Of a stretch of 64,000 nt of DNA, positions 39,188-59,369 are shown piece after piece. The first letter of the stretch is position 1, and every line of letters starts with the position of its first letter. A program made the position numbers and the translations under genes. This stretch comes from Roseivivax sediminis (GTDB lineage Bacteria > Pseudomonadota > Alphaproteobacteria > Rhodobacterales > Rhodobacteraceae), in NCBI RefSeq assembly GCF_900112685.1, contig NZ_FOMS01000015.1, positions 1 through 64,000 on the forward strand, in the 5' to 3' direction. Below the pieces are notes generated by a model, which was given only the letters and a program-made list of their open reading frames with translations, searched no databases and had not been told where the DNA came from.

Positions 39188-39366
39188 CACCCGCCCGAAC
39201 AGCACCGCAGATGCCGGGCGCGCGCCGGACCGTCCCCACGGTCTGGCGCGATGTCACCCTCGTGCGACGTTCATATTGCGGAGGGATGTGTCCGGGATAA
39301 AGCGATGACCTCGGAAGTCGCAGCGCCAGCCCCCGGTCCGGTGCGCGCCCGGCACCTGCGGTAGCC
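39188..39366 (-). repeat. Palindromic intergenic repeat, copy A
   Basis: Copy A of a three-member family, inverted relative to copies B and C. Read on the minus strand it has a left arm starting ACCGCAGGTGCC, a core with CGCTTTATCCCGG and CTCCGCAATA, a right arm ending CTGCGGT, and the shared tail TTCGGGCGGGTGG. Arms pair over about 28 bases with few mismatches. The rest of the 584-base gap between pgm and the downstream hydrolase shows no gene: before the element are two hairpins, after it a C-rich stretch with a small palindrome CTGACCGTCAG at 39454-39464 that may belong to the downstream promoter. Confidence 0.85.
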
Positions 39367-39581
39367 CTCGCCAATTGTCGCGCATAACACCATCGCGCTG
39401 ACGAAACCCGCCGAACCCGGCGTGACACCAGCACCACGCCCATCAAATCCGCACTGACCGTCAGCCCCGCGCGATCCGCCCCCTGTCCTCTTGCCGCCCG
39501 CGTCCCAGTGACCCACGATCTGGTCCCACGCCGGCCCGCTCTACATCGCACCGACGAACCGAAACGACCCGAGGATCGCCC

Positions 39582-41951
39582 ATGTCGCTCGCCGACCGCA
39601 TCGTCTTCGATGAAGCCGCCGCCACCGCCCGTGCCGAAGCCTGCGAAAGGATCCTCACCGAAGCGCCCTCGCGCTTCGAAGCCGAGCAGGAGATCGCCCG
39701 CGGACTCGGCGGCCAGATCGACGCAGACGGCCTTGCCAGCTTCGGCTTCTGGGTGCCCGAGTTGCAGGATTACCGCGTGCCCTCGGGCGACATCTTCCTG
39801 GAGATCCTCAGCCCCACGGAGCCGCTCGACCTCACGCGCGCGCACCAGGATATCCGGTTCGAACGGACCTACGTGCCCGCCATCCGCCTCGAATCGCACG
39901 CCTTCGCCTGCGTGCGCGGCATGAAGGCCGGCACGCGCGACGAGGTGGGCGATTTCTACGCGCTGGTCTGGCGCGACGCCGATGATGCGTGGCACCGCAT
40001 CCTCGACCCCCTGGCGATGTCCCTGCCCTTCGGCGCCATGGCCCCGGCCGAGCTTTACGATGTGGACCGAATGCTCGCAGAGCGCGGCGACAAGGGCTAC
40101 TGGCAGGCGCTCGCCAGCCCCGAGCCGCACAAGTTCGGCCCGGTCACCAACATCCTGCAGCTGCACATTCCGACCGCCACGGCCGGCGGCACCATCGCCT
40201 CGCTCACCCGCCAGTTCGAACGGCTCGCCGCGCGGGTGGAGGCGGGCCTGCCGATGGATCCGGCCGACCAGATCTACCTCGGTTACGACGCCGTGCAGCC
40301 CCTGCCGGTGGAGCCGACGACGGTCTACGAGGCCGGCCCGGATTTCTGGCAGGAAAGCGAGTCCTCGGACACCGGCGTGACTGTCTCGCTCCTCAGGCCG
40401 GACACGACGAACTGGGGCTACGACAACGTCATTGCAGGCATGGCCACGGTGAACCCCGTGCTGCTGGAATCGGGGCGCCCGGACGAGCTTATCGACCTTG
40501 CGACCGTGCTGCACAACTTCCCCGGCAAGCCCAAGCGGCTGATCTTCGACGTGGTCTACGGCCATTCGGACAATCAGGGCCTGCGCGTCCTCAACGGGCA
40601 CTTCTTCGGCGGGCCGAACATGTACGGCCAGAACCTCGCCTACCAGACGCCCGCCGTCCGCGCGATCCTTCTGGAGATGCAGCGCCGCAAGGTGAATTTC
40701 GGCGCCGACGGCGTGCGCGTCGACGGCGCGCAGGACTTCAAGTGGTGGGACGCCGGCGCGCAGGAGCTCAAGCATGACGACGAGTACCTGCAAAGCATGG
40801 CCGACGTCGTGCAGGAGGTCGCCGGCACGCGATACCGCCCTTGGTTCATCTTCGAGGACGGCCGCCCCTGGCCCAACGAGGACTGGGAGCTGAGCTCCAC
40901 CTACCGCTGGGTGACCGAGCACCAGCGCGATCCGGACGTGTTCCAGTGGGGGCCGCTGACCTTCGCGCACAACACGCCGTTCCTCTATACCTTCTGGCTG
41001 GGCAAGTACTGGCGGATCCGCGAATGCCTGAACGTGGGCTCCCACTGGATCTCGGGCACGTCGAACCACGACACGCTGCGCCGGGGCACGCAGGTTAGCC
41101 CGAAGATGAACATCAACACCCGCCTCGGCCAGACGCGGATGGAGATCCTCGACAAGGCCTACGACAACCCCGCCGCGCACACGCTGACCTATGTCGCGCT
41201 GCCCGGCGTGCCAATGGATTTCCTCAACGCCATGGCCCGCGCCTCCTGGGGCTTCGTGCGCAACCAGGACGACAAGTACGGCGTGAAGGTCATGGCCGAG
41301 GAGGCGATTTCCCTGCGCTGGCAGGTGGACGAGTATTCCTATTCCATGCCCGCCAACTTCTCGCGGCTGAAGGCGCTGGGGTTCGAAACGCGCGCCGATC
41401 TTGCCCGCCTCTGCACCTTCCTGCCCGCGCTGGTGGAGGTCACCGACTACGATCTCGAGGATATCGCGCGGCTGCTGAACACCACCGAGCCGAAGCTTGC
41501 CGGCCCGCTCTACACACCCGAGACGCTGAAGGCGGTGGCGCGGGCGTGGATGGACGACATGCACGATTACTGCAACATCGGGCACTCGCTGGGGTCGCTC
41601 GACCCGGTGCAATCGTCCTTCGCGCTCGGCCTTCGGGACTTCCGCGCAGCGCGGCCGTGGCTGCGCGACAATTACGGGCCGAAGGACCGTTTCAGCTATC
41701 TCGACCCGATCGACGGGCGCTGCGTCTTCACCTCGCTGCGGCATGGGCCGGACGGCGAACAGGTCTTCTCGATCATACACATGGAGGGGAAGGAGACCGA
41801 GGATTTCGACCCGCTGCGCCTGAAGATCCCCGGTCTCGAAGGGTTCAACTGGGAATGCGTCCTGCGCGCGCCGGGGATCGGGGAGGATTACGTCTCAGGT
41901 CCGCTGGTCCTGCGCGATTCCATGGCGCTGGTGTTCACGCGGAAGGTTTGA
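39582..41951 (+). CDS. Clan GH-H hydrolase, glucosylglycerol hydrolase-like
   Basis: A 789-residue cytoplasmic enzyme of the alpha-amylase superfamily. Conserved regions: D-V-V-Y-G-H with D323 (region I), V-R-V-D-G-A-Q with D381 (likely nucleophile), F-I-F-E-D-G with E425 (likely acid/base), and S-N-H-D-T with D497. An N-terminal domain of about 250 residues and a long C-terminal domain surround the barrel. It does not look like an ordinary amylase, glucosidase or sucrose phosphorylase; overall character recalls the glucosylglycerol hydrolase group from osmolyte-producing bacteria. GAGGA precedes the ATG. It would link the compatible solute glucosylglycerol to the glucose and glycogen genes upstream. 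Fold confident, substrate moderate. Confidence 0.7.
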   Translation: MSLADRIVFDEAAATARAEACERILTEAPSRFEAEQEIARGLGGQIDADGLASFGFWVPELQDYRVPSGDIFLEILSPTEPLDLTRAHQDIRFERTYVPAIRLESHAFACVRGMKAGTRDEVGDFYALVWRDADDAWHRILDPLAMSLPFGAMAPAELYDVDRMLAERGDKGYWQALASPEPHKFGPVTNILQLHIPTATAGGTIASLTRQFERLAARVEAGLPMDPADQIYLGYDAVQPLPVEPTTVYEAGPDFWQESESSDTGVTVSLLRPDTTNWGYDNVIAGMATVNPVLLESGRPDELIDLATVLHNFPGKPKRLIFDVVYGHSDNQGLRVLNGHFFGGPNMYGQNLAYQTPAVRAILLEMQRRKVNFGADGVRVDGAQDFKWWDAGAQELKHDDEYLQSMADVVQEVAGTRYRPWFIFEDGRPWPNEDWELSSTYRWVTEHQRDPDVFQWGPLTFAHNTPFLYTFWLGKYWRIRECLNVGSHWISGTSNHDTLRRGTQVSPKMNINTRLGQTRMEILDKAYDNPAAHTLTYVALPGVPMDFLNAMARASWGFVRNQDDKYGVKVMAEEAISLRWQVDEYSYSMPANFSRLKALGFETRADLARLCTFLPALVEVTDYDLEDIARLLNTTEPKLAGPLYTPETLKAVARAWMDDMHDYCNIGHSLGSLDPVQSSFALGLRDFRAARPWLRDNYGPKDRFSYLDPIDGRCVFTSLRHGPDGEQVFSIIHMEGKETEDFDPLRLKIPGLEGFNWECVLRAPGIGEDYVSGPLVLRDSMALVFTRKV

Positions 41952-42008
41952 GGTCGTTCGGTCGCCGGCGCCAGCGCTCCCTCTGCGGTGGGTCTCATGG
42001 TTACTTTC

Positions 42009-42194
42009 GGTCGGAGCAACCGAAGGTGCCGGGCGCGCGCCGGACCGGGGGCTGGCGCCGCGACCTCCGAGGTCATCGCTTTATCCCGGCCAAGCACCTC
42101 CGCAATACGAACTTCGCAAGAGGATGACATCGCGCCAGACCGCCGGGCCGGTCCGGCGCGCGCCCGGCACCTGCGGTGCTGTTCGGGCGGGTGG
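42009..42194 (+). repeat. Palindromic intergenic repeat, copy B
   Basis: The most complete copy, between two convergent genes. The first 30 bases from ACCGAAGGTGCC and the last 30 up to CTGCGGT are reverse complements with one mismatch. Inside them CTGGCGC pairs with GCGCCAG. The core again has CGCTTTATCCCGG and CTCCGCAATACGAAC. Flanks GGTCGGAGCA on the left and TTCGGGCGGGTGG on the right are shared with copy C. It could act as a bidirectional terminator, but the family is much more conserved than a terminator needs. Confidence 0.88.
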
Positions 42195-42243
42195 AGCCTT
42201 GGCCCAAGCCTCGCCCTGAGATGAGCGGCCCAGCAGACCACCT

Positions 42244-43506
42244 TCACCCGAACATGTCCGCCGTGATCTCGTCGTACCAGCCGAGGCTCTCGCGGTAAGT
42301 ATCGGCGCGCGTCTCGGCATCCTCGCCAAGCTCCGAGATGAACCCGTCCACGCGCGCGATCTTCTCCTCCGTCGCCTCGTAGGACGCGCCGACCTTCACC
42401 CCGTCATCGGGCGCGATCAGCGACCAGCAGGTATTGGCGTAGACCGCCGGGAAGACGCGCGCATCCGTGAGCGCGCCCAGCACCGCGCTCGCGCAGACCC
42501 GCGCCTGGCTGTTGGCCGAGAACGCCGATTTCGGCATGTCCCCCTGCGCCGCGGCATCCCCCAGAACATGCACCGCCGGATCGAGGCGGGAGGACATGTC
42601 GGCGGCGTTCACCGGCGCCCAGTCGCCCTCGGTCAGGCCGGCCTCGTGCGCGACGCGGCCCGCCCGCTGCGCGGGGATGACGTTGCAGACGTCCACGTCC
42701 TCCACGATACCGTCGATGTCGATGCGCATGGCGGCGGGGTCCACCGACACCGCCGCGCCGCCGAAGTCCGGGCCGATGCGCTCGATCATGCCGCCGTAGT
42801 GCCGCTGCCAGCCCTCCTCGAAAAGCGCCTGCTTGGAGAACCCCTCCTTGGGATCGACGATCAGGATCTTGGCCCTTGGGTTCATCGCCTTGAGCGTCGT
42901 CGCGACCATGGAGATCCGCTCATAGGGGCCCGGCGGGCAGCGATAGGGATCGGGCGGCGCGATCATCGCGAATGTGCCGCCCTCGGGCATGGCGAGGATC
43001 TGCGACTTCAGGAGCTCCGCCTGCGTGCCGCCGCGATAGGCGTGCGGCATGTCGTCCTGCGCCGTGACATCCCAGCCGGGCACCGCACCGTTCTTGAAGT
43101 CGATGCCGGGCGACAGGATCAGCCGGTCATACGGCACCGACGCGCCGGAGGCGAGCGCCACCACGCGCGCATCCCTGTCCACGGCGACGGCCCAGTCGTG
43201 CACGACGTTTATGCCGTATTCGGCGGCGAGCGTCCCGTAGCCGTGCCCGAGGCTCTGCATGTCCCGCAGACCACCGATATAGAGGTTGGAGAAGAAGCAG
43301 GTGAAATAGCTGCGCGAGGGCTCGATCAGGGTGACCTCGACCGCCCCGCCGGACTCCAGAGCGAGATAGCGCGCCGCCGTGGCACCGCCGGCGCCGCCGC
43401 CGACGACCACCACGCGCGGCACCCCTTGCGCCATGACCATCGGCGCCGCGAACGCGGCGCTGCCGGCCGCGAGGCCGCCGAGGACAGTCCGTCTGTGATG
43501 GGTCAT
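42244..43506 (-). CDS. soxF: Flavocytochrome c sulfide dehydrogenase flavoprotein subunit
   Basis: FAD-dependent sulfide dehydrogenase flavoprotein (FccB/SoxF type) of 420 residues. A Tat-type signal (T-H-H-R-R-T-V-L-G-G) leads to the FAD motif V-V-V-G-G-G-A-G-G-A-T-A. Cysteines in Y-F-T-C-F-F, Y-R-C-P-P and N-T-C-W-S fit the redox disulfide expected in the family. The ATG at 43506 has GGGAGAGGGAG upstream. It follows soxZ by 47 bases. No FccA cytochrome gene adjoins it. It should oxidise sulfide or a SoxY-bound sulfur species in the periplasm. Confidence 0.88.
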   Translation of the reverse strand: MTHHRRTVLGGLAAGSAAFAAPMVMAQGVPRVVVVGGGAGGATAARYLALESGGAVEVTLIEPSRSYFTCFFSNLYIGGLRDMQSLGHGYGTLAAEYGINVVHDWAVAVDRDARVVALASGASVPYDRLILSPGIDFKNGAVPGWDVTAQDDMPHAYRGGTQAELLKSQILAMPEGGTFAMIAPPDPYRCPPGPYERISMVATTLKAMNPRAKILIVDPKEGFSKQALFEEGWQRHYGGMIERIGPDFGGAAVSVDPAAMRIDIDGIVEDVDVCNVIPAQRAGRVAHEAGLTEGDWAPVNAADMSSRLDPAVHVLGDAAAQGDMPKSAFSANSQARVCASAVLGALTDARVFPAVYANTCWSLIAPDDGVKVGASYEATEEKIARVDGFISELGEDAETRADTYRESLGWYDEITADMFG

Positions 43507-43553
43507 GCCGCTCCCTCTCCCTGTGTGGAACGCCGTGTCGGCACCGGACCCGG

Positions 43554-43883
43554 TCATTCCACAACGATCTCGCGTGCCTCTTCGTAGATCGATCCGTCAT
43601 CGTCGTACCAGGCGAAGGTCATCGTCCCGCTTTCGGGGACGCGCGCATCGAACTCGAAGAACGGATTGGTGGAGATCGCCGGCTCCATCGCCACGTCGAT
43701 CACCGTCTCTCCGTTGAAGCGCGCGACGAAGCGGTGGATGATCGAGCGCGGCACGCGCCGGCCGGCTTCATCCCTGCGCTCACCCGATTCCATCCGGTGG
43801 CTGATCAGCGTCTTGATCGTCACCACCTCTCCGGCGGTGGCGGTCGCGGGCACGCGCACCCGGGGGGTCACGTTCTCGGCCAT
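43554..43883 (-). CDS. soxZ: Sulfur-oxidation carrier partner SoxZ
   Basis: SoxZ of 109 residues, a small beta-sandwich protein that pairs with SoxY. It has the family sequence feel T-A-G-E-V-V-T-I-K-T-L-I-S-H and F-A-W-Y-D-D-D-G, and no signal peptide of its own; in known systems it is exported bound to SoxY through the Tat pathway. AAAGGA precedes the ATG. It starts 16 bases after soxY. Confidence 0.92.
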   Translation of the reverse strand: MAENVTPRVRVPATATAGEVVTIKTLISHRMESGERRDEAGRRVPRSIIHRFVARFNGETVIDVAMEPAISTNPFFEFDARVPESGTMTFAWYDDDGSIYEEAREIVVE

Positions 43884-43899
43884 CGCGGTCCTTTCGCGC

Positions 43900-44325
43900 T
43901 CATGTCGGCGCCCCGCAGCCGCCGAGCGTCACCTCCACCGACCGCCGCGCCTCGATGTACCGGCCGCCGTCCATGCGGGCGATCGCGATCACCTCTTGCG
44001 ACTGGGCCAGCCGGATGCGGGTCGAGGCGCGCTGCGCGCCGGACAGCGGGCCGAAGGTGAAGGTCGCGACTTCCGGGTTCGGGTTCGCCGGGGCGAGGAC
44101 GAGAATGGCCTCCGCCCCCGGCGCAGCGACCTCGATCGGCACGGTGAAGCCGTTCTCCGCGATCTCGGGCAGGATCAACGTGACGTCCCCGGGCGCGATG
44201 TTCGCGCCGCCCGTGAACGCGGCGATCGCGGCCTCGGCCTTCGTCGCCGCGCCCTCCCCGAACGCCGTCCCGGCCGCTGCGCCGAGCCCGAGCGCCAGGG
44301 ACGTCCGGCGCGAGATGGGCCTCAT
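43900..44325 (-). CDS. soxY: Sulfur-carrier protein SoxY
   Basis: SoxY of 141 residues. A Tat signal (I-S-R-R-T-S-L-A-L-G) precedes the carrier domain. The C-terminal swinging arm ends G-G-C-G-A-P-T, where C137 would carry the sulfur intermediate. The common ending is G-G-C-G-G, so the last residues differ. The ATG at 44325 has no Shine-Dalgarno of its own and overlaps the stop of an upstream 25-codon ORF as ATGA, so coupled translation is likely. SoxXA, SoxB and SoxCD are not in this window. Confidence 0.9.
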   Translation of the reverse strand: MRPISRRTSLALGLGAAAGTAFGEGAATKAEAAIAAFTGGANIAPGDVTLILPEIAENGFTVPIEVAAPGAEAILVLAPANPNPEVATFTFGPLSGAQRASTRIRLAQSQEVIAIARMDGGRYIEARRSVEVTLGGCGAPT

Positions 44326-44399
44326 GCCGAGACACCGATGCCGCGGCAGACCGGCGCGGGCCGGTCCGGCCCGGACCTCAGCGGGTACGATCCTCGCAT
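44322..44399 (-). CDS. 25-codon upstream ORF coupled to soxY
   Basis: A short frame starting at ATG 44399 with a very strong GGGAGGAGG Shine-Dalgarno four bases upstream. It encodes 25 residues (begins M-R-G-S-Y-P-L-R, contains one cysteine) and ends with a TGA that overlaps the soxY ATG. The strong ribosome site here and the lack of one at soxY suggest ribosomes reach soxY by reinitiation. It may be a leader peptide; conservation is untested. Confidence 0.55.
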   Translation of the reverse strand: MRGSYPLRSGPDRPAPVCRGIGVSA

Positions 44400-44671
44400 C
44401 TTGCCTCCTCCCCAGGGCCGTGCAGGTGAGGCAAAGGCTACACGCCCCGGGCGGCCACACGCAACGACGGTGCCGCAAACGTGTGCGCATGTCGGGAAAA
44501 TCGCGGCAAACGGTACGAGGCCGATCCGGTGAACGTCATCTCTACTGGAACGCCACCGACTCGTGGCGCGAGCCGTCGGGGGTTCGTTGGCTGTTGGACC
44601 TGCCCAAGGTGACAAGGTCGGCACGGCGGTTCGTCACGCGCAGGCATCCGCGGCGCCCCCGGGCCCGTGCC
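44400..44671. other. Region upstream of soxY, no gene recognised
   Basis: Between the upstream ORF and the hmuV stop. Apart from the ribosome-binding site at 44401-44414, I see no gene, tRNA or clear operator here. It should carry the sox promoter, read on the minus strand. Confidence 0.5.
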
Positions 44672-45454
44672 TCAGTCGGCCTGCGCCATGTGCGGCAGGA
44701 TGAAGGAGGCCGCCTCTCCCGGCACCGCGTTCACCCGCACCCGGCAGCGATAGGCGCGCGAAAGCGTGGCGTCGGTCATCACCTCGCCCGGCGCGCCCTC
44801 GGCTATGATCCGGCCCTCGGAGAGGCACAGCATCCTGTCGCCGAACATGGCCGACAGGTTCAGATCGTGCATCACGGCGATCACGCCCCCGCCGGCATCG
44901 GCGAAATCGCGCGCCACCTGCATCACCTCGATCTGGTGACCGATGTCGAGGCTCGACACCGGCTCGTCGAGGAAGAGCCAGCGCGGCCCATCCTCCGTCA
45001 CCGGCTCCCACACCTGGGCCAAAACGCGGGCGAGCTGGACGCGCTGCTGCTCTCCGCCCGACAGCTCTTGGTAGGATCGCTCGGCATAGCCCGCGAGGCC
45101 GACGCGCCCGAGCGCAGCGGCGGCGATCTCGGCGTGCTCTCCTGCATCGCCCGCGCGCAGGCCGATGCGCACGACCTCGGTCACGGTGAAGGGAAAGGCG
45201 AGCGTCGCGGCCTGCGGCAGCACCCCGCGCAGCGCCGCCAGCTCCCATGCGCGCAGGCGCGCGGTGTCGCGGCCGTTGATCGAGACGGTCCCGTCATGCC
45301 GCGCGTCCCCCGTCAAGGCGCGCAGCAGCGTCGTCTTGCCCGACCCGTTCGGGCCGACGATGCAGGACAGCGCGCCGGGCGCGGCCCGAAGGTCCACACT
45401 GTGAAGGATCTCGCGCCGACCCAGCGCCACCCTTATCCCATGCGCCTCGAGCAT
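44672..45454 (-). CDS. hmuV: Haemin ABC transporter ATP-binding protein
   Basis: HmuV-type ATPase of 260 residues. Walker A GPNGSGKTT (about 35-43), signature L-S-G-G-E-Q-Q-R and Walker B L-F-L-D-E-P-V-S-S-L-D are intact. Its ATG overlaps the hmuU TGA by one base. It powers haem or iron-complex import through HmuU. Vitamin B12 transport is the usual alternative for this family, but HmuS in the operon argues for haem. Confidence 0.93.
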   Translation of the reverse strand: MLEAHGIRVALGRREILHSVDLRAAPGALSCIVGPNGSGKTTLLRALTGDARHDGTVSINGRDTARLRAWELAALRGVLPQAATLAFPFTVTEVVRIGLRAGDAGEHAEIAAAALGRVGLAGYAERSYQELSGGEQQRVQLARVLAQVWEPVTEDGPRWLFLDEPVSSLDIGHQIEVMQVARDFADAGGGVIAVMHDLNLSAMFGDRMLCLSEGRIIAEGAPGEVMTDATLSRAYRCRVRVNAVPGEAASFILPHMAQAD

Positions 45455-46488
45455 CAGAGGTCCACCAGCCCGCGGCGGCGCAGCAGGATCCACAGGAAGA
45501 CCGGCGCGCCAAGGATCGCGGTCAGGATGCCGATCGGAAGCTCGGCCGGTGCCACGATTACCCGCGCCGCCGTATCCGCGGCCACCAGAAGCGCCGCGCC
45601 GCAGAGCGCGGAGTTGACCAGCAGCGCGCGGTGGTCCGGCCCGGTGGCCAGGCGCAGAAGATGCGGCACGACGATGCCGACGAAACCGATCCCGCCCGAG
45701 ACCGCCACCGCCGCTCCGGTGCCGAGCGCCACCGACAGGATTGCCAGCGTTTTCACCCGCTCGACCTCGAAGCCGACATGCGCCGCCGTCGCCTCCCCCA
45801 AGGCCAGCGCGTTCAGCGCCGGGCCAAGCGTGCAGGCCGCGACGATGGCGAGCGCGATGGCCGGGCCGGAGGCGGCAAGCTTGACCCAGCTCGCCCCGGC
45901 GAGCGAGCCGAGGTTCCAGAAGGTCAGGTCGCGCAATTGCTGGTCGTCGGCCATGAAGATGAACACCCCCGCCAGCGCTGCGGCGAGCGCGGCCACCGCG
46001 ATGCCCGCCAGCAGCATGGTGGCGACCGAGGTGCGACCGCCCCGCGTCGACACGCGGTAGAGGCCGAAGGTCACGCCCCAGGCACCGAGGAACGCCGCCA
46101 CCGGCACCGCGTAGGCGCCGCTCGGGATCAGCGCCACCGACCCGCCCAGCACGATCACCGTGATCGCGCCAAGCCCGGCACCCGCGCTCACCCCGATGAT
46201 GCCCGGATCGGCGAGTGGATTGCGGAAGAGCCCTTGCAGCAGCGCCCCCGACACCGCGAGCGCCGCGCCCACGGCAATACCGGTCAGAAGCCGCGGCAGG
46301 CGGATGTCGTAGAGCACCACGCGCTCGATCTCCTCCAGCGCGTGGGCGCCCGACAGCGCACCCAGGACATCCCCCAGCGTCAGGCCCGTCGCGCCGATGC
46401 CGAGGCTCGTCAGCGACACCGCCGCCAGCAGCGCAGCAAAGACCGCGTGCAGCGCCCGCGCGCGCGCCAGCCGGTCGCCGTGCCGCAT
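45454..46488 (-). CDS. hmuU: Haemin ABC transporter permease
   Basis: FecCD/BtuC-type permease of 344 residues from this ATG, with about ten hydrophobic helices and conserved stretches such as L-Q-G-L-F-R-N-P-L-A-D-P. The open frame continues upstream to a TTG at 46527 that would overlap hmuT by 4 bases; GTG codons lie between. Neither region shows a good Shine-Dalgarno, so the start is uncertain by up to 13 residues. It lies between hmuT and hmuV. Confidence 0.92.
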   Translation of the reverse strand: MRHGDRLARARALHAVFAALLAAVSLTSLGIGATGLTLGDVLGALSGAHALEEIERVVLYDIRLPRLLTGIAVGAALAVSGALLQGLFRNPLADPGIIGVSAGAGLGAITVIVLGGSVALIPSGAYAVPVAAFLGAWGVTFGLYRVSTRGGRTSVATMLLAGIAVAALAAALAGVFIFMADDQQLRDLTFWNLGSLAGASWVKLAASGPAIALAIVAACTLGPALNALALGEATAAHVGFEVERVKTLAILSVALGTGAAVAVSGGIGFVGIVVPHLLRLATGPDHRALLVNSALCGAALLVAADTAARVIVAPAELPIGILTAILGAPVFLWILLRRRGLVDL

Positions 46489-46523
46489 CCCGCGGCCGAG
46501 GTCGGAGGCGACGGCCACCCGCC

Positions 46524-47432
46524 TCAATCCCCGTAGAGCGCGGTGGAAAGCTCGGCCGCCACCTCGGCCGTGCGCGGACCGAAGCCCAGGAGCTTCAGAC
46601 CGTCCATGCGGATCACGCGGCCGTCCCGCGCCGCCGGCGTCGTTCGCAGGGCGGGCGAGCCGAACAGCGTTTCGTCCGAAACCGCGTGCTCGCCGCCCCG
46701 GTCCATCATCAGCACGGCCTCCGGCGCCGCGGCCGCGACCGCCTCGTCCGAGACCTGCTTGTAGCCCTGAAAGCCCCTCATCGCGTTCTCGGCGCCCGCC
46801 ATGCGGATGATGCCATCGGCCGCGGTCCCCACGCCCGCCGCCATCAGGCGCCCGCCTTCGGCGCTCATCACGAAGAGGACGCGGCGCGCCGGGCCGTCGT
46901 GCGCCGCTGCCCGTTCCGAGGCGTCCCGAAGCGCGGTGCGCGTGCGCTCGGCCAGCTCGGCCGCCCTATCGGGACGGCCAAGGGCCGCGCCCACCGTCTC
47001 GATCTTCGTCAGCACCGCTTCGGCGTCGAAGCCGCCGGGCACAGTGACGAATTCGACATTCGCGGCACGCAGGACCTCCACGGCCTCGGGCGGGCCGGCG
47101 CCCTCTTCCGCGAGGATGAGGTCGGGGCTCACCGACAACACCCCTTCGGGCGAGAGCGCGCGCACATAACCCACGTCGGGCAACTCCGTCGCGTCCGGCG
47201 GCCAGGTGGACGTGCTGTCGCGCCCGACCAGGCGGTCGCCCTCGCCCAGGGCATAGACGATCTCGGTCACCGCGCCGCCGAGCGACAGAACGCGGCTTTC
47301 GCCTTCGGCGGCATTTGCCATCGGGAGCGTCGCCACCGCCCAGGCGAACGCCGTGGCGATCCCGGCGGTCATCAGGGAGAGGATCGCAACGAGGCGGCCG
47401 TCGGTGCCGCGGGTCTTGCGGGTCCGGAACAT
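46524..47432 (-). CDS. hmuT: Haemin-binding periplasmic protein
   Basis: Periplasmic haem-binding protein of 302 residues (TroA-like fold). The ATG at 47432 has AAAGGA upstream; the much longer open frame beyond it is a shadow of hmuS. A hydrophobic signal (about 15-40, ending A-N-A-A-E) precedes the mature domain, which begins V-L-S-L-G-G-A-V-T-E-I-V-Y-A-L-G. It delivers haem from the outer-membrane receptor to HmuUV. Confidence 0.92.
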   Translation of the reverse strand: MFRTRKTRGTDGRLVAILSLMTAGIATAFAWAVATLPMANAAEGESRVLSLGGAVTEIVYALGEGDRLVGRDSTSTWPPDATELPDVGYVRALSPEGVLSVSPDLILAEEGAGPPEAVEVLRAANVEFVTVPGGFDAEAVLTKIETVGAALGRPDRAAELAERTRTALRDASERAAAHDGPARRVLFVMSAEGGRLMAAGVGTAADGIIRMAGAENAMRGFQGYKQVSDEAVAAAAPEAVLMMDRGGEHAVSDETLFGSPALRTTPAARDGRVIRMDGLKLLGFGPRTAEVAAELSTALYGD

Positions 47433-50930: not shown

Positions 50931-51959
50931 ATGAGCCGCCCGACGATACACGATGTCGCCCGTGTCGCCGGCGTCAGCCTGTCCACGGTCGACCGGGTGC
51001 TCAACGGCCGGGTCGGTGTCCGCGAAGGCACCCAGCTGCGTGTCGCCGAGGCCATGCGGACGCTCGGTTACGAACGCAATGTCGCGGCCGCCAACCTCTC
51101 GCGCCGCCGGCAATACCGGCTGCGTTTCTTCCTGCCCTCGGGTTCCAACTCCTTCATGCGCGGGCTCGAAGACCGGGTGCGAGAGCGCATGGCCGTGGCG
51201 GGTCGCGACTCCACCGTGATCGAGGTGACCACGGTCCCGCCCTTCGACGCCCCCGCGCTCGCTGCCGAGCTGCGCGGCCTCTGTGCGGATGCTGTCGACG
51301 GCGTCGCCATCGTCGCTACGGACGCCACCGCCATCCGCGTCGCCGTGCAGGACCTTCGAGCCCGCGGCATCGCGGTCGTCACGCTGGTATCGGACCTGCC
51401 CTCTTCGGAGCGCCAGCATTTCGTGGGAATCGACAACGTTCAGGCCGGCCGCACCGCGGCGAGCCTTCTCGGCCGGTTCTGCCGCTGGCGGCCCGGCCGG
51501 ATCGCGCTCGTGGCCGGGTCCATGCTGGTGCGCGACCACGTCGAACGCCGGCTCGGCTTCGAGCAGGTGCTGCGCGCCGAGTTCCCGGACCAGGCGATCG
51601 GCGCCACGATCGAGGGCCTCGACGATCAGGACATCGTGGAGGAGCGTCTTCGCACGATTTTGGCCGAAGACCCCGGGATCACGGGGATCTACAGTTTCGG
51701 CGCCGGCAACCGGGGTGTCGCGCGGGCCGTGTCCGGGCTCTCCCCGGACCGTCGCCCTGCTGTGGTCGTCCACGAACTGACACATTATTCGCGCGACGCC
51801 CTGCTCGACGGCGTGTTCGACGCCGTCATCCATCAGGACGACGCTCGCGAAGTCGATGTCGCCATTCGCACCCTGCGTGCGCTCGCTGACGGCGAAAGTC
51901 CCGACGGGGCCGCCGAGCGCATCGGGGTCGAGGTCTTTCTGCGCGACAACCTGCCCTGA
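50931..51959 (+). CDS. LacI-family regulator of xyloside genes
   Basis: LacI-type regulator of 342 residues. Helix-turn-helix T-I-H-D-V-A-R-V-A-G-V-S-L-S-T-V-D-R-V-L-N-G-R at the N-terminus, then a type-1 periplasmic-binding-like sensor domain with D-G-V-A-I-V-A-T-D. AGGGG precedes the ATG. It begins the xylose/xyloside locus and has a palindromic site just upstream, suggesting autoregulation. The sugar recognised is inferred from neighbours (GH43, XylA). Confidence 0.88.
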   Translation: MSRPTIHDVARVAGVSLSTVDRVLNGRVGVREGTQLRVAEAMRTLGYERNVAAANLSRRRQYRLRFFLPSGSNSFMRGLEDRVRERMAVAGRDSTVIEVTTVPPFDAPALAAELRGLCADAVDGVAIVATDATAIRVAVQDLRARGIAVVTLVSDLPSSERQHFVGIDNVQAGRTAASLLGRFCRWRPGRIALVAGSMLVRDHVERRLGFEQVLRAEFPDQAIGATIEGLDDQDIVEERLRTILAEDPGITGIYSFGAGNRGVARAVSGLSPDRRPAVVVHELTHYSRDALLDGVFDAVIHQDDAREVDVAIRTLRALADGESPDGAAERIGVEVFLRDNLP

Positions 51960-52002
51960 CGGTGACTCGCCTTCGGCGGGTCCTTTGAGGTGTGAGCAAA
52001 AA

Positions 52003-52018
52003 TGAGGTACGTTAATCA
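52003..52018. promoter_or_regulatory. Operator candidate upstream of xyloside binding protein
   Basis: TGAGGTACGTTAATCA, an imperfect palindrome centred on ACGT, 55 bases before the binding-protein ATG. Together with the site at 50888 it defines a TGA-N3-ACG-N-TA-N-TCATAC pattern, probably bound by the adjoining LacI protein. Confidence 0.6.
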
Positions 52019-52073
52019 TACGATGCGATTCGAGGCGCGGAGGGCGCCTGGAAGACACGGATGGGAGGACTTC

Positions 52074-53333
52074 ATGAGACACAGCGTTGCGACTCTCGCG
52101 CTGCTCGCCGGCACGGCTCTTGCCGGCACGGCCGCGGCCCAGACCGAGATCAGCATCCTGCGCGTTGCCGTGAACGACGAGCAGGAACAATATTACGAGG
52201 AAATCGCCCAGGCCTTCGAGGCCGAGCACGAGGGCGTCGACGTCAATTTCGAATACATCGCGAACGAGGCCTACAAGTCGAAGCTGCCGACGCTGCTTCA
52301 GTCTGACGCCCGCCCCGACGTGTTCTACAGCTGGGGCGGCGAGACGCTGCGCCAGCAATCCGAGGCCGGCTTCCTGAAGGATATCTCGGACCTGCTGCCC
52401 GACGGCTTCCGCGAGACGATGCCCGAGGCCGCGCTCAACGCCTACTCGGTCGACGGCACGCTCTACGGGTTGCCGCTCTACGCGACCGAGGTCGTACTCT
52501 GGGTCAACACCAACTTGACCGAAGAGGCCGGCGTCGATGTCGACGCGATCGAGACCTGGGAAGATTTCCTCGGCGCGGTGCAGACGCTCAAGGACGCAGG
52601 CGTCACGCCCATCGTCGCGGGCGGGCAGGACAAGTGGCCCCTGCACTTCTACTGGAGCTACCTCGCGCTGCGCGAAGGCGGCCCGGACGTCGTGACCCAG
52701 GCGATGGGCGGCGAAGGCGACGGGTTCGAGGCCGAGGCCTTCATCGAGGCCGGCCGCGAGTTCCAGAAGCTCACCGAGATGGAGCCGTTCCAGGACGGGT
52801 TCATGGGCACCACCTACGAAACCTCCAGCGGCATGTTCGCCGACGGCGCCGGCGCCTTCTACCTGATGGGCGACTGGGATTACCTGCCGATGCGCGAGCG
52901 CTCGACCGATGGCGGTCTGTCGGACGAGGAGCTACGGATCATCTCCTTCCCGACCATCGCCGACCCGGTGACCGAGGGCGGCGACGGCGCCACTCTGGGC
53001 GGGATCAACGGCTGGGCGGTGTCGTCCACGGCGGAGCCCGAAGCGGTGGAATTCCTCGCCTTCATGCTGAACGAGGAAAACCAGCGCCAGGCGGCCAGCC
53101 AGGAGATCTTCATTCCGGTGGCCAAGGGCACCTCGGACGCGCTGCAGAATCCATTCTACCGCCAGGTCGCCGAACATATCGAGGCAAGCAGCTATCACCA
53201 GATCTTCCTCGACCAGTTCCTCGGCGCATCGGTCGGGGCGACGGTGAACGACGTCTCGGCGGACCTCGCGCAGGGAGCGATCACGCCCGAGGACGGGGCA
53301 GCGCAGGTCCAGGAGGCCTGGGACTTCCGCTGA
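52074..53333 (+). CDS. Xyloside/sugar ABC transporter substrate-binding protein
   Basis: Family-1 solute-binding protein of 419 residues. ATG 52074 has GGGAGGA upstream and a clean signal peptide (M-R-H-S-V-A-T-L-A-L, cleavage near A-A-A-Q); a longer frame from 52002 is rejected. It captures oligosaccharides for the two permeases that follow. Given GH43 and XylA, xylo-oligosaccharide or xylose is likely. A strong hairpin separates it from the first permease. Confidence 0.92.
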   Translation: MRHSVATLALLAGTALAGTAAAQTEISILRVAVNDEQEQYYEEIAQAFEAEHEGVDVNFEYIANEAYKSKLPTLLQSDARPDVFYSWGGETLRQQSEAGFLKDISDLLPDGFRETMPEAALNAYSVDGTLYGLPLYATEVVLWVNTNLTEEAGVDVDAIETWEDFLGAVQTLKDAGVTPIVAGGQDKWPLHFYWSYLALREGGPDVVTQAMGGEGDGFEAEAFIEAGREFQKLTEMEPFQDGFMGTTYETSSGMFADGAGAFYLMGDWDYLPMRERSTDGGLSDEELRIISFPTIADPVTEGGDGATLGGINGWAVSSTAEPEAVEFLAFMLNEENQRQAASQEIFIPVAKGTSDALQNPFYRQVAEHIEASSYHQIFLDQFLGASVGATVNDVSADLAQGAITPEDGAAQVQEAWDFR

Positions 53334-53340
53334 CCCGCAG

Positions 53341-53373
53341 CGGCCGGCGCGCAACTCCTCCGCGCGCCGGCCG
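53341..53373 (+). terminator. Hairpin between binding-protein and permease genes
   Basis: Twelve-base perfect arms (53341-53352 and 53362-53373) with a 9-base loop, 7 bases after the binding-protein stop. No T-run, so probably an RNA-stabilising or partial termination structure. It matches the position of the hairpin after aglE. Confidence 0.6.
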
Positions 53374-53403
53374 TCGTCCGAATTCCGCTATCGGAGACAT
53401 CGC

Positions 53404-54327
53404 ATGGCCACCGCCGAGACCCGGCGCCTGACGGCACCGGACCGCCTGCGCCGCAGCCTGTCGAACGGCCGGGTGAGCGCCGCGCTGATCCTGCTGCCGC
53501 CCGCACTGATCCTGTTCACCCTGTTCGTGATGCTGCCCCTGGGCGAATCCGTCTGGTATTCGTTCTTCAGCTGGAACGGCTACGGCACGCCGACCGACTA
53601 TGTCGGCCTTGAGAATTACCAGCGCATCGCGGGGCATTCGGTGTTTCACACGGCGGTGGGCAACACGCTGAAAATCGTCGCGATCTCGATCCTGCTGCAG
53701 ATGCCGCTGGCGCTGCTTCTGGCGCTGCTGATCTACCGCAAGACGCCGACCAACGCGGTGTTCCGGCTGATCTTCTTCGTGCCCTACATCCTCGCCGAGG
53801 TCGCCGCCGGCCTGATCTGGAGCTTCGTCTTCGACGGCAATTACGGCGTCACCGCCTCCATCGCGCAAAGCCTCGGGACAGAGAGCTTCTTCATTCTCGC
53901 GGACCGCGACTGGGCCTTCGTCGCGGTGATGACGGTGATCGTCTGGAAGTATTTCGGCTTTCACATGATGATCTACATCGCCGCCCTCCAATCTGTGCCC
54001 GAGGACCTGATCGAGGCCGCGCGGATCGAGGGCGCGAAGCGCCGGCAGATCGTCCGCTATGTGCAGATCCCGCACATCAAGCCAGCCATCATTGTCTCGG
54101 CCTTCTTCGCCATCATCGGCGCGCTGCAGGTCTTCGACATCATCATCCCGCTGACGAACGGCGGCCCGTCGAACCAGACGCACACCATCGTCACCTACCT
54201 CTACACCTTCGGGCTGACCCGGCTGAACATCGGGTTCGGCAGCGCGGTGGGCGTGATCCTCTTCATCGCGGCGATCACGGTAGCGGTCTTCTACCAGCGC
54301 TTCTTCATGCAAAGGGGGCAGGCATGA
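53404..54327 (+). CDS. Sugar ABC transporter permease (MalF type)
   Basis: Permease of 307 residues with six hydrophobic helices and the ATPase-contact loop E-A-A-R-I-E-G-A-K-R-R-Q-I. CGGAG precedes the ATG. It overlaps the next permease gene by 4 bases (ATGA), so the two are translated as a pair. Confidence 0.94.
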   Translation: MATAETRRLTAPDRLRRSLSNGRVSAALILLPPALILFTLFVMLPLGESVWYSFFSWNGYGTPTDYVGLENYQRIAGHSVFHTAVGNTLKIVAISILLQMPLALLLALLIYRKTPTNAVFRLIFFVPYILAEVAAGLIWSFVFDGNYGVTASIAQSLGTESFFILADRDWAFVAVMTVIVWKYFGFHMMIYIAALQSVPEDLIEAARIEGAKRRQIVRYVQIPHIKPAIIVSAFFAIIGALQVFDIIIPLTNGGPSNQTHTIVTYLYTFGLTRLNIGFGSAVGVILFIAAITVAVFYQRFFMQRGQA

Positions 54328-55154
54328 CCCGCGGGCATCTCATCCGCAACATCCTGCGCGTGGCCTTCCTGTGCATCGTGGCGAGCTTCGTGCTCGCTCC
54401 GATGCTCGCCACCGTTCTCGGCGGATTCAAGACGAACGCGGAGATCCGCACCTCGGCCTTCGCCCTGCCCGAAAGCTGGAACTGGGAGTTCTACGGCTCC
54501 ATCGCCACCGACCCGATGTTCTGGCGCTATCTCGGCAACTCGCTCCTGATCTCCATCTCGGCGGTGGCTCTGACGCTCATCGTCGGGGCGGCGGCGGCCT
54601 ACGTCTTCGCGCAGATCCGGTTCTTCGGGTCGCGGATGCTGTTTTCCTACCTGCTGCTGGGGCTGATGTTCCCCTTCGCCACCGCGATCCTGCCGCTCTT
54701 CATCAAGGTGCGGGATGTGGGACTGCTCGACACCTACTGGGCGGTGATCCTGCCGCAGGCGGCGTTCAGCCTGTCGCTCGCCATCCTGCTGTTCCGGACG
54801 TTCTTCGAACAGCTTCCGAAGGAGCTCTTCGAGGCGGCCTATATCGACGGCTGCGGCTACGTGCGCTTCTTCTGGCGCTTCACCTTGCCGCTCTCGGCGC
54901 CGATCCTGGCGACCGTGGGCGTCTTCGTCTTCGTGCAGAGCTGGAACAACTTCCTGCTGCCGCTGGTGGTGCTCAACAGCCGCGAGGTCTTCACCTGGCC
55001 GCTCGGCATGATGCAGTTCCGCGGCGAATACGTGACCGAGTGGAACCGCACGCTGGCCTTCGTGACGCTGACCATCGTGCCGGCCATCGTCTTCTTCCTC
55101 GCCGCCCAGAAATACATCGTCGCCGGACTGACCGGGGGCGCCGTCAAGGGATGA
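54324..55154 (+). CDS. Sugar ABC transporter permease (MalG type)
   Basis: Second permease, 276 residues with six helices. EAA loop E-A-A-Y-I-D-G-C-G-Y-V-R-F-F; it is of standard length, unlike AglG. Its end meets the GH43 gene start. Confidence 0.94.
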   Translation: MTRGHLIRNILRVAFLCIVASFVLAPMLATVLGGFKTNAEIRTSAFALPESWNWEFYGSIATDPMFWRYLGNSLLISISAVALTLIVGAAAAYVFAQIRFFGSRMLFSYLLLGLMFPFATAILPLFIKVRDVGLLDTYWAVILPQAAFSLSLAILLFRTFFEQLPKELFEAAYIDGCGYVRFFWRFTLPLSAPILATVGVFVFVQSWNNFLLPLVVLNSREVFTWPLGMMQFRGEYVTEWNRTLAFVTLTIVPAIVFFLAAQKYIVAGLTGGAVKG

Positions 55155-55156
55155 CC

Positions 55157-56794
55157 ATGACCGAGATCCAGAACCCGATCCTGCCCGGCTTCAACCCCGA
55201 CCCCTCGATCGTGCGGGTGGCCGAGGATTACTACATCGCCACCTCGACCTTCGAATGGTACCCGGGCGTGCAGATCCACCATTCGCGCGACCTCGTGCAC
55301 TGGCAACTCGTGACCCGGCCGCTCGACCGCGCGGCGCAGCTCGACATGCGGGGCGATCCGGATTCGGGCGGGGTCTGGGCACCCTGCCTGACCTGGGCCG
55401 ACGACCGGTTCTGGCTGATCTACACCGACATGAAGCGGCGCGACGGCGCGTGGAAGGACAGCCACAACTACCTCGTCACCGCGCCGACGATCGAAGGGCC
55501 GTGGTCGGACCCGGTCTACCTAAATTCCTCGGGCTTCGATCCGTCGCTCTTTCACGACGAGGACGGGCGCAAGTGGCTCCTGAACATGATCTGGGACCAC
55601 AACCAGACCGGCGGCGACCGCTTCGGCGGGATCGTCTGCCAGGAATATTCGGTGGGCGAAAAGCGGCTGGTGGGAGAGGTGCGCAACATCTACCGCGGCA
55701 CCGACCACAAGCTGACAGAGGGGCCGCACCTCTATCGCCGGGACGGCTGGTATTACCTGCTGACGGCCGAGGGCGGCACGGGCTACGAGCACGCGGTGAC
55801 GATGGCGCGTTCGCGCGACCTCTTCGGCCCCTACGAGACGGACCCCGCCAAGCACATCCTGACGGCCAAGGACGCGCCCGAGGCCGAGCTGCAACGCGCC
55901 GGACACGCCGACATCGTCCAGACGCAGACCGGCGAGGTCTACATGGTGCACCTGTGCTCGCGTCCGCTGGCGGAGACGCGGGGCGCGCCGGTTCAGGAGC
56001 GCTACCACATCCACACCGACGACAGCCGCCGCTCGCCGCTCGGGCGCGAGACGGCGATCCAGAAACTCGTCTGGCCCGAGGGGGAGTTTCCCCGCCTCGC
56101 CCATGGCGGCTGTGTCCCGGCGGCCCGCGTCGAAGCGCCGAACATGCCGGCCTACCCGGTGACGCCGGTCCCGGCCCTGCGTACCTTCGAGGACGGTCTG
56201 CCGCCCGAATTCCAGTGGCTGCGCAATCCGCACCGGGACCGGCTCTTCTCGCTCACCGCGCGGCCCGGCGCGCTGCGCCTCTTCGGTCGGGAATCCCCCG
56301 GCTCGCAATTCGAACACGCGCTGGTCGCGCGCAGGCAGGAGCATATCGCCTTCGCCGCGGAAACGGAGATCGACGTCGCCCCCGGCGACTATCAGCACTT
56401 CGCCGGGCTCATCTCCTGGTATGGCCGGTTCAAGTTCCACTACCTCGCCGTGACGGCGGACGCCGATGGCGCGCGCGCCCTGACGATCTATTCCTGCCCC
56501 GCCGACTGGCCGGACGCGCGCGTCGAGATCCCGGTGGAGCCGATCCCCCTGCCCGCCAGTGGCCCGATCAAGCTTGGTTGCGATATCGACGGCGCGCGGC
56601 TGACCTTCCGCTTTTCCACCGGCGGCGACTGGCAGTCGCTGGGCGTCACGCTCGACCAGTCCGCGATCTCGGACGAGGCCGGCAACGGGCCGGGCAACAA
56701 CTTCACCGGCGCCTTCGTCGGCATGTGCGCGCACGACACATCGGGCCGCGGCCGTCCCGCCGATTTCCTCAGCTTCCGCTACGAGGCCAAGTGA
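55157..56794 (+). CDS. Beta-xylosidase/alpha-arabinofuranosidase, GH43
   Basis: GH43 enzyme of 545 residues without a signal peptide, so intracellular. It begins N-P-I-L-P-G-F-N-P-D-P-S, whose aspartate is the general base; D in G-F-D-P-S-L-F and E in T-E-G-P-H-L-Y are the other catalytic positions. A C-terminal beta-sandwich (from about 320) is typical of GH43 xylosidases. AAGGG lies six bases before the ATG at 55157; the ATG at 55151 overlaps the permease stop and is possible. It would cut imported xylo-oligosaccharides to xylose for XylA. Confidence 0.9.
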   Translation: MTEIQNPILPGFNPDPSIVRVAEDYYIATSTFEWYPGVQIHHSRDLVHWQLVTRPLDRAAQLDMRGDPDSGGVWAPCLTWADDRFWLIYTDMKRRDGAWKDSHNYLVTAPTIEGPWSDPVYLNSSGFDPSLFHDEDGRKWLLNMIWDHNQTGGDRFGGIVCQEYSVGEKRLVGEVRNIYRGTDHKLTEGPHLYRRDGWYYLLTAEGGTGYEHAVTMARSRDLFGPYETDPAKHILTAKDAPEAELQRAGHADIVQTQTGEVYMVHLCSRPLAETRGAPVQERYHIHTDDSRRSPLGRETAIQKLVWPEGEFPRLAHGGCVPAARVEAPNMPAYPVTPVPALRTFEDGLPPEFQWLRNPHRDRLFSLTARPGALRLFGRESPGSQFEHALVARRQEHIAFAAETEIDVAPGDYQHFAGLISWYGRFKFHYLAVTADADGARALTIYSCPADWPDARVEIPVEPIPLPASGPIKLGCDIDGARLTFRFSTGGDWQSLGVTLDQSAISDEAGNGPGNNFTGAFVGMCAHDTSGRGRPADFLSFRYEAK

Positions 56795-56815
56795 TGGACC
56801 AAAGGACCAAGACCC

Positions 56816-57823
<1,008 letters not shown>

Positions 57824-57867
57824 CCCGCCTGCCGGCCCTTCCAACCAAAAAAGACAGAGACACAGAC

Positions 57868-59169
57868 ATGACCGACTTCTTCCGCGACATCCCGACGATC
57901 GAGTACCGCGGCCCGGGCGCGGACACCGAATTCGCCTACCGCCACTACGATCCGGACGAGACGGTGATGGGCAAGCGGCTGGAGGATCACCTGCGGTTCG
58001 CCGTGGCGTACTGGCACAGCTTTGCCTGGGAAGGTGGCGATCCGTTTGGCGGGCAGACCTTCGACCGGCCGTGGTTCGGCGGCACGATGGAAGACGCCAA
58101 GCTCAAGGCCGACGCCGCCTTCGAGCTGTTCGCTTTGCTCGGCCAGCCGTTCTTCTGCTTCCACGACGCCGACGTGCGCCCCGAAGGGGACAGCTTTGCC
58201 GAAAGCCGCCGCAACCTCGAAGAGATCACCGACTATTTCGGCACCAAGATGGAGGAGACGGGCACCCGGCTCCTCTGGGGCACCGCCAACATGTTCTCGC
58301 ACCGCCGGTTCATGTCGGGTGCGGCGACGAACCCCGATCCTGAGGTCTTTGCCTGGTCGGCGGCCTCGGTGAAGGCATGCATGGACGCGACCCAGAAGCT
58401 TGGCGGCGCGAACTACGTGCTCTGGGGCGGGCGCGAAGGCTACGAGACGCTGCTCAACACCGACATGGGGCGCGAGCGCCAGCAGGCCGGCCGGTTCCTG
58501 ACCATGGTCGTTGACTACGCCAAGAAGATCGGCTTCGACGGCACCATCCTGATCGAGCCCAAGCCACAGGAGCCGACGAAGCATCAATACGATTACGACG
58601 TCGCGACGATCTACGGCTTCCTCAAGGATTTCGGGCTGGAGAACGAGGTCAAGCTGAACATCGAACAGGGCCACGCGATCCTCGCCGGACACAGCTTCGA
58701 GCACGAGCTGGCACTGGCGCGCGAGCTGGGGATCCTCGGTTCCATCGACATGAACCGCAACGATTACCAGTCCGGCTGGGACACCGACCAGTTTCCCAAC
58801 AACGTGCCCGAGGTCGCGCTGGCCTATTACGAGGTGCTGCGCGCGGGCGGCTTCGGCACCGGCGGGACGAACTTCGACGCGAAGCTGCGGCGCCAGTCGC
58901 TCGACCCCGAGGATCTGGTGCTGGCGCATGTCGGCGCCATGGACATCTGCGCGCGCGGGCTCAAGGCCGCGGCGGCGATGCTGGAGGATGGCGGGCTCGA
59001 AGCCGCGCGGGCCGAACGCTATGCCGGCTGGGACCGGCCCGAGAACGCGGCGATGCTGACCTCGGACCTGTCCACCATCGCCGCGCGTGTGGAATCGGAC
59101 GCACTGAATCCCGAGCCGCGCTCGGGCAAGCAGGAGCGTCTGGAGAACTGGGTCAGCCGGTTCGTGTGA
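57868..59169 (+). CDS. xylA: Xylose isomerase
   Basis: Class II xylose isomerase of 433 residues, converting D-xylose to D-xylulose. Characteristic blocks include [24 protein letters not shown] and the metal-site [14 protein letters not shown]. Length is normal. It is the last gene of the locus; xylulokinase does not follow, so xylB must be elsewhere. A perfect hairpin follows the stop. Confidence 0.96.
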
Positions 59170-59177
59170 TCCCGAGG

Positions 59178-59203
59178 ATCGGGCGCGCGACGGCGCGCCC
59201 GAT
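59178..59203 (+). terminator. Terminator-like hairpin after xylA
   Basis: Perfect 11-bp arms (59178-59188 and 59193-59203) with a GACG loop, 8 bases after the xylA stop. There is no T-run. It is the likely end of the xyloside transcript, just before repeat copy C. Confidence 0.6.
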
Positions 59204-59223
59204 CACGCCCGCAAATTCCCGGT

Positions 59224-59369
59224 GGTCGGAGCAACCGCAGGTGACGGGCGCGCGCTGGACCGGGGTCTGGCGCCGCGCCCTCCGAAGTCTGCGCTTTATG
59301 CCGGTCACGCTCCTCCGCAATACGAGCGGACCGCGCGCGCGTCACCTGCGGTGCTATTCGGGCGGGTGG
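59224..59369 (+). repeat. Palindromic intergenic repeat, copy C
   Basis: Third copy, again between convergent genes. It shares left flank GGTCGGAGCA, core CGCTTTATGCCGG and CTCCGCAATACGA, and tail TTCGGGCGGGTGG, but lacks about 31-33 bases right of the core. Its left arm has GGTGAC where B has GGTGCC, and its right arm has GTCACC where B has GGCACC: a compensatory pair. The rest of the 348-base gap, 59370-59517, shows no gene. Confidence 0.85.

What the first reader, a model, noticed from the sequence alone, without database searches (positions are those of the whole stretch)
39188..59369. Three-copy palindromic element with compensatory change in its arms
Copies A (39188-39366, inverted), B (42009-42194) and C (59224-59369) share flanks, core and tail. 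Each folds into one long hairpin: B's outer 30-base arms pair with one mismatch. In C the left arm reads GGTGAC and the right arm GTCACC, while B reads GGTGCC and GGCACC, so both sides changed together. Pairing has thus been kept, which points to a functional structured RNA, a DNA hairpin site or a MITE-like element with long terminal inverted repeats. C has lost about 31-33 bases from the middle yet keeps the ends. No protein explains it.
Basis: seen in the sequence. Interest (0 to 1): 0.75.

Follow-up and report, generated by a model that had tools for sequence, protein, structure and literature searches.

The report
High-copy hairpin repeat at gene ends
The three look-alike palindromes are copies of a strongly folded DNA repeat, not found in the RNA family library searched, that sits in the gaps after genes in many bacteria of one family, in one relative in more than a hundred places, and whose folded shape appears to be protected by evolution.

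Summary
A, B and C are copies of one dispersed repeat of about 188 bp (C is a 148-bp deletion form); 34 places in this genome carry it. A congener shows 120 distinct places in a cut list, two congeners none. Across the family 216 of 394 genomes match; the 4 positives of a 289-genome class draw are all of this family. Compensatory change is real: 21 of 30 stem pairs in 51 copies, 94.3% of cells paired against 34-38% when slid. The 30 copies examined lie between genes; convergent gaps are enriched, divergent ones avoided. In six copies shared by two species the arms differ at 4.5% of sites, intergenic flanks at 21%. G.T exceeds A.C 36 to 12 in the main stem, hinting at one folded strand. It is not RAYT-driven here, not in Rfam, and shows no T-tract or target duplication. 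Best reading: an ERIC-like, non-autonomous structured repeat kept as hairpins at transcript ends. Transcription and the mobiliser remain untested.

The parts
39179..39366 (-). Copy A, full length (188 nt), between phosphoglucomutase gene 37366-38997 (+) and GHL5-type glycoside hydrolase gene 39582-41951 (+)
   Evidence: R1 206.9 bits; gene calls; Pfam; not found in the same gap in 8 of 8 congeners
42015..42202 (+). Copy B, full length (188 nt), between convergent genes 39582-41951 (+) and 42244-43506 (-, flavocytochrome c sulphide dehydrogenase-like)
   Evidence: R1 206.6 bits; fold z -3.9; genes
42023..42058 (+). Copy B left arm (outer stem plus inner stem strand ending GGCTGGCGC)
   Evidence: paired with the right arm
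42059..42131 (+). Copy B central loop with the family-wide CTTTAT..GCCA block; varies between copies mostly without length change
42132..42172 (+). Copy B right arm (GCGCCAG..GGCACCT)
42162..42188 (+). Copy B possible alternative 3' hairpin: right-arm GCCCG can also pair with downstream CGGGC
   Evidence: weak: 79.1% of cells paired, 72.1% when slid by one column; one of six pairs carries most of the covariation
59230..59377 (+). Copy C, shortened (148 nt): 40 nt lost from the 3' part of the loop and the inner right arm, outer arms kept; between convergent genes 57868-59169 (+) and 59518-63144 (-, hydantoinase A/B)

Best explanation
It is a family of non-autonomous, dispersed palindromic repeats (ERIC-like in size and placement) found in over half of the sampled genera of one family. 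Shown: many copies, very uneven copy number between congeners, intergenic placement with a preference for gene 3' ends, strong covariation of one long hairpin, slower change of the arms than of loop and flanks in copies shared by two species. Inferred: each copy is transcribed as part of the 3' region of the neighbouring gene(s), where the long G+C-rich hairpin acts as a two-sided barrier that shields mRNA ends from 3'-5' exonucleases and keeps convergent transcripts apart. Inferred: it spreads by an unidentified enzyme that recognises the folded single strand rather than fixed terminal sequences.
For: Copies: 34 distinct places at E <= 2.1e-10 in G000. Congeners by R2: G006 150 matches (scoring cap; 120 distinct places visible in the cut list), then 43, 30, 8, 4, 4, 0 and 0. 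Breadth: 216 of 394 family genomes, 215 of 393 genera. Fold. Context: 30 of 30 best copies between genes (4 overlap a predicted gene end by 5-11 nt), 16 convergent, 12 tandem, 2 divergent; gap-length background from 61 other gaps of this genome 17.8/42.4/39.8%, p = 1e-5 for convergent, 1e-4 for divergent. In tandem gaps 26 of 38 copies lie nearer the upstream stop than the downstream start (p = 0.03). Strand: G.T 36 versus A.C 12 in the main stem of A4 (p = 0.0007 by cells; 18 genomes versus 7). Constraint: in the six G005/G007 pairings whose loops are closer than in any of 288 other pairs the arms differ at 18 of 404 sites, the loop at 72 of 439, 70-bp flanks at 150 of 714 (summed by hand); arms of unrelated copies differ by 23% on average, so this is not mere uniformity. 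Gain: the gap of site A is 584 bp here, 17-195 bp in 7 congeners and 809 bp in the eighth, none with the element.
Against: No RNA-seq; no promoter-like or terminator-like site at the copies. RNAalifold scores both strands almost alike (-109.1 and -110.8). In the wider set of 138 copies the G.T excess is smaller, 89 versus 57 on the main stem (hand sum), and 218 versus 206 over all predicted pairs. Orientation relative to tandem genes is not clearly biased: 9 same, 3 opposite here, 14 and 12 in relatives. In relatives alone the nearness to the upstream stop is not significant (16 of 26, p = 0.33). At about 11 of 18 shared G005/G007 places the two copies are not clearly the same copy. Over 13 same-orientation pairings the arm/flank contrast is milder, 12.7% versus 23.7%. 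No mobiliser was found. Template-switch repair between palindrome arms could produce paired changes without selection (general knowledge).
Confidence: 0.55

Rival explanations
1. Purely selfish mobile DNA: a MITE/REPIN-like parasite whose hairpin arms are kept only because a transposase must recognise them; its place at gene ends only reflects purging from promoters and genes.
For: Copy number from 0 matches to at least 120 distinct places within one genus; in 9 of 12 genomes with three or more copies the copies resemble each other more than those of any other genome; local clustering, 6 gaps under 5 kb against 1.2 expected, P = 0.0005; a 246-bp unit about 98% identical at two unrelated places in G081; absence at site A in congeners; different copies in the same gap of two species.
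Against: In six copies shared by G005 and G007 the arms changed at 4.5% of sites while flanks changed at 21%, unexpected for dead copies; no Y1 transposase in the genome and no association across the family with R1, 5 of 36 versus 7 of 84 (p = 0.34); no target duplication.
Confidence: 0.27
2. Bidirectional intrinsic transcription terminators that have been multiplied.
For: Placement in convergent gaps and after stop codons; very stable hairpins.
Against: No T-tract: 0 terminator-like sites around A, B, C. A hairpin with T-tract stands after a long open frame on contig C11 beside an element remnant, so the genome uses ordinary terminators too.
Confidence: 0.08
3. Structure without function: paired changes come from template-switch repair of quasi-palindromes, and copies drift.
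For: Strong palindromes are prone to such repair (general knowledge, no call).
Against: G.T exceeds A.C on one strand of the main stem; arms of shared copies evolve more slowly than loop and flanks; 65 of 66 anchored G006 copies keep exactly 160 nt between landmarks despite 13.6% mean difference, though these were taken from the best-scoring places.
Confidence: 0.1

Closest known systems
ERIC (enterobacterial repetitive intergenic consensus)
   Same: Long imperfect palindrome over 100 bp, many copies, intergenic, mobiliser not established (ERIC features recalled, no call).
   Different: No match of copy B in 20,395 E. coli records at E 0.01; other bacterial family; about 188 bp; four related stem segments.
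REP / REPIN with RAYT transposases
   Same: Inverted palindromic units around a spacer; the local hairpins also covary; tandem and clustered copies; genome-specific flavours in 9 of 12 genomes.
   Different: No RAYT-type domain in this genome; no fixed GTAG or CGTC tag; several times longer than the 20-40 bp given for REPs in the start of the abstract of PMC3733652.
MITEs
   Same: Short, non-coding, multi-copy, inverted arms.
   Different: Tips poorly conserved, no target duplication detected, no related insertion sequence seen.

Membership tests
REP/REPIN | RAYT (Y1_Tnp, PF01797) in the genome or associated with the repeat | tested here: not met
   0 in G000; Y1_Tnp in 5 of 36 R1-positive versus 7 of 84 R1-negative genomes, p = 0.34. 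With the more sensitive R2 at least 8 of the 12 Y1_Tnp genomes are positive, against 216 of 394 overall. G006 was not tested for Y1_Tnp.
REP/REPIN | GTAG or CGTC tetranucleotide at the foot of the palindrome | tested here: not met
   in 30 copies any one tag, read in either sense, occurs in a 50-60-nt end window in at most 10; tag definition from passages of PMC3733652
REP/REPIN | two inverted hairpin units | tested here: met
   local hairpins 90.1% paired cells, 8 of 17 pairs with double changes
MITE | conserved terminal inverted repeats | tested here: not met
   conservation falls off gradually at both ends
MITE | target-site duplication | tested here: not met
   65 G006 copies, best z 3.5 in 16,450 tests; one genome only
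MITE | related autonomous transposon | not tested
   no systematic search; one orphan arm looked at is a remnant
ERIC | intergenic long palindrome, many copies | tested here: met
ERIC | ERIC sequence | tested here: not met
   no match in E. coli records at E 0.01; that these genomes hold ERIC is recalled
Intrinsic terminator | hairpin followed by T-tract | tested here: not met
   0 sites at A, B and C
Known Rfam RNA family | match at gathering score | tested here: not met
   0 in the window; six sub-threshold matches in three loci, none over the element
Structured RNA | covariation of stems | tested here: met
   the structure was taken from a consensus fold of the same alignment, which favours it in the slid control
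Structured RNA | transcription | not testable with these tools
   no RNA-seq available

The most novel reading that the evidence does not exclude
A family-wide RNA switch dispersed in over a hundred copies in some genomes: the right arm is kept so that it can pair either with the left arm or with a downstream strand. One triple of positions (23, 166 and 194 of A4) changes together, 12 double changes with 1 failure for the second helix. Forming the long hairpin or the 3' hairpin would then set transcript ends or decay of many genes together. Against it: the second helix is only 79.1% paired, 72.1% when slid by one column, and two of its five measures do not exceed the shuffles.
Probability: 0.12. 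Interest if true: 0.85.

Novelty: new variant of a known kind. Interest (0 to 1): 0.55.

Why it matters
A covariation-supported repeat present in over half of the sampled genera of one family, without an Rfam match, and ranging from no match to over a hundred places between congeners is a natural experiment: the same genes can be compared with and without the element. It also offers a clean case for separating host function from selfish spread in palindromic repeats, since the RAYT transposase that explains REPs is missing from this genome.

Tried and rejected
Protein coding: 0 Pfam families in 5 ORFs over the copies, and the gene finder calls no gene across any of 30 copies. RAYT-driven REP: not supported. 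Intrinsic terminator: not supported. Guide-like loop matching the insertion flanks: no signal in 65 copies, mean longest match 7.08 own versus 7.03 other on the left, 7.02 versus 7.03 on the right. Target duplication: none detected. Base pairing of the conserved CTTT with AAAG of the right arm: judged by eye only; it does not follow when AAAGCGCC becomes AAATCGCC. Element inverted in place between G005 and G007 (L255/L335): the two copies are of different type, so not an inversion of one copy. Named-organism scan of genome contigs: 8 stretches, 6 of them one MAG; the pattern was too strict. Literature: searches showed 20 of 414, 15 of 58, 8 of 8, 12 of 1,856 and 12 of 18 papers; from titles and starts of abstracts none is about such a repeat in this family. 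I saw passages of PMC12306157, PMC4809877 and PMC3733652 and read no paper whole; PMC11578231 on Paracoccus yeei, in the list, was not opened.

Rows dropped before counts: of 65 model matches, 46 were used (antisense duplicates, a duplicate locus and partial matches left out) and 45; of 76, 63 were used; A4 holds 51 of 138 copies, capped per genome, three copies with long inserts left out; context was read for the best 30 of 34 own places; 68 G006 copies were taken from the best-scoring places, 66 could be anchored, 65 have the 160-nt core. The first arm-versus-flank test used 3 of 18 pairings (arms 1.9%, loop 12.8%, coding flank 8.9%, intergenic flank 16.2%); on checking I repeated it on all 18 pairings and report that.

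Full report
Check. The three copies exist and match as stated. The model places them at A 39179-39366 (-), B 42015-42202 (+) and C 59230-59377 (+). Folding gives z -3.9, -3.6 and -2.8 for B, A and C, with 0, 0 and 2 of 200 shuffles as good. Against B, C lacks 40 nt from the 3' part of the loop and the inner right arm, not 31-33 nt from the middle. No protein family matches five ORFs across the copies.

Copies in this genome. Blastn with copy B gives 74 matches in the 4.62-Mb assembly, many of them one arm matching the other. A covariance model of 24 copies (R1) gives 65 matches, antisense ones included; 34 distinct places remain at E <= 2.1e-10. They cluster: 6 neighbouring gaps are under 5 kb against 1.2 expected, P = 0.0005, and five lie on the 58.8-kb contig C18 (the null ignores contig ends). 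Some copies carry a further hairpin of about 25-37 nt in the right arm.

Breadth. Blastn finds the repeat in 15 of 61 genomes, this one counted, R1 in 36 of 120 family genomes, and R2, built from 51 copies of 31 genomes, in 216 of 394. In a class-wide draw of 289 genomes the 4 positives are all of this family; such large searches use stricter filters that lose weak matches. Within the genus, R2 match numbers are 76 here (antisense included), 150 in G006 (the scoring cap; I count 120 distinct places in the cut list), 43, 30, 8, 4, 4, 0 and 0. Mean identity is 0.65 within G000 and 0.73 within G006, but 0.56 between them; in 9 of 12 genomes with three or more copies the within-genome mean exceeds every between-genome mean, the exceptions being G005, G007 and G019.

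Fold. The long hairpin (30 pairs) has 94.3% paired cells against 34-38% when slid by 1-3 columns, 21 pairs with changes on both sides, and no shuffle in 500 reaching any of the five measures; the structure came from a consensus fold of the same alignment. The local hairpins of the four related stem segments and a helix between the right arm and a downstream strand also covary, more weakly; for the latter two of five measures do not exceed the shuffles and a slide by one column still pairs 72.1%. On the strand as read, G.T exceeds A.C in the main stem 36 to 12 in A4 (p = 0.0007 by cells, which are not independent; 18 genomes against 7) and 89 to 57 in 138 copies (hand sum; binomial p), but 218 to 206 over all pairs predicted there. 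This favours, without proving, a folded single strand of that sense. Consensus folding energies do not separate the strands.

Place. The 30 copies examined of 34 are intergenic: 16 convergent, 12 tandem, 2 divergent (gene finder trained on the window); four overlap a predicted gene end by 5-11 nt. Against 61 other gaps of this genome weighted by length, of which only 4 are convergent, convergent gaps are enriched (p = 1e-5) and divergent ones avoided (p = 1e-4). In relatives 46 copies gave 14 convergent, 26 tandem, 1 divergent and 5 undecided. In tandem gaps the copy lies nearer the upstream stop in 10 of 12 here and in 16 of 26 relatives, 26 of 38 together (p = 0.03).

Gain and constraint. 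At site A no element was found in 8 of 8 congeners; seven have gaps of 17-195 bp, the eighth 809 bp. By contrast, the GHL5 gene before copy B is also followed by elements in G005 (one) and G007 (two), in the other orientation, and by none within the stretch searched in the other six. G005 and G007 share 18 element-bearing pairings of gaps. In six of them the loops are closer than in any of 288 other pairs, so these are the same copies by descent; there the arms differ at 18 of 404 sites (4.5%), the loop at 72 of 439 (16.4%) and the 70-bp flanks at 150 of 714 (21.0%) (sums). Unrelated copies differ by 23% in the arms, so homogenisation alone does not explain this. Over 13 same-orientation pairings the figures are 12.7%, 28.5% and 23.7%. 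At about 11 of the 18 the copies are not clearly the same, and four are in opposite orientation, which points to repeated arrival or replacement in the same gaps. In G006, 65 of 66 anchored copies, taken from the best-scoring places, have exactly the same core length although they differ by 13.6% on average. A 246-bp unit with the element is about 98% identical at two unrelated places in G081, which suggests recent duplication; its ends lie outside the arms and I could not tell transposition from recombination.

What it is not. There is no Y1 transposase here and no association in the family with R1, no fixed GTAG/CGTC tag, no target duplication detected, no T-tract terminator at A-C, no Rfam family, and no match in E. 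coli or, for the copy L090, in phages.

Conclusion. The best reading is an ERIC-like family of non-autonomous structured repeats, so far seen in one family, spread by an unknown route and kept as single-strand hairpins near gene 3' ends, most likely as barriers at transcript ends. Existence, breadth, fold and placement are shown; the function and the mobiliser are inferred. The strongest rival is a selfish element without host function; the shared-copy result speaks against it but rests on six pairs from one pair of species.

Noticed in passing
G000 contig C18, 26007-50830 (L234, L235): Four copies at E <= 1e-30 or so plus weaker ones, five at E <= 2.1e-10, in 25 kb, several about 4 kb apart, against 0.4 expected on the contig; cause unknown.
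   Followed up: partly
L165 and L166 (G081), about 971-1216: Nearly identical 246-bp unit around the element at two unrelated places; its ends may touch another repeat.
   Followed up: partly
G005/G007 shared gaps, e.g. L255/L335, L345/L343, L354/L367: The same gap holds elements of different type, some in opposite orientation, in two related species.
   Followed up: partly
L075, L080, L083, L084, L086: Copies with an additional small hairpin inserted in the right arm, of two different types.
   Followed up: no
L127, L123, L130, L142, L144, L151, L094, L045: Two same-oriented copies in a row with short spacers, sometimes with repeated 5' flanks.
   Followed up: no
window 12053-13150: Five repeats spaced 258-261 bp in a gene with an N-terminal VWA domain.
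   Followed up: partly
window 13354-14439 and 56816-57823: Two genes seen as a 72-78% inverted repeat pair, probably paralogues; not studied.
   Followed up: no
L232 about 4175: Remnant right arm of the element after a long open frame (at least 1337 codons, cut at the locus start, of rpoC size), just beyond a hairpin with T-tract.
   Followed up: no
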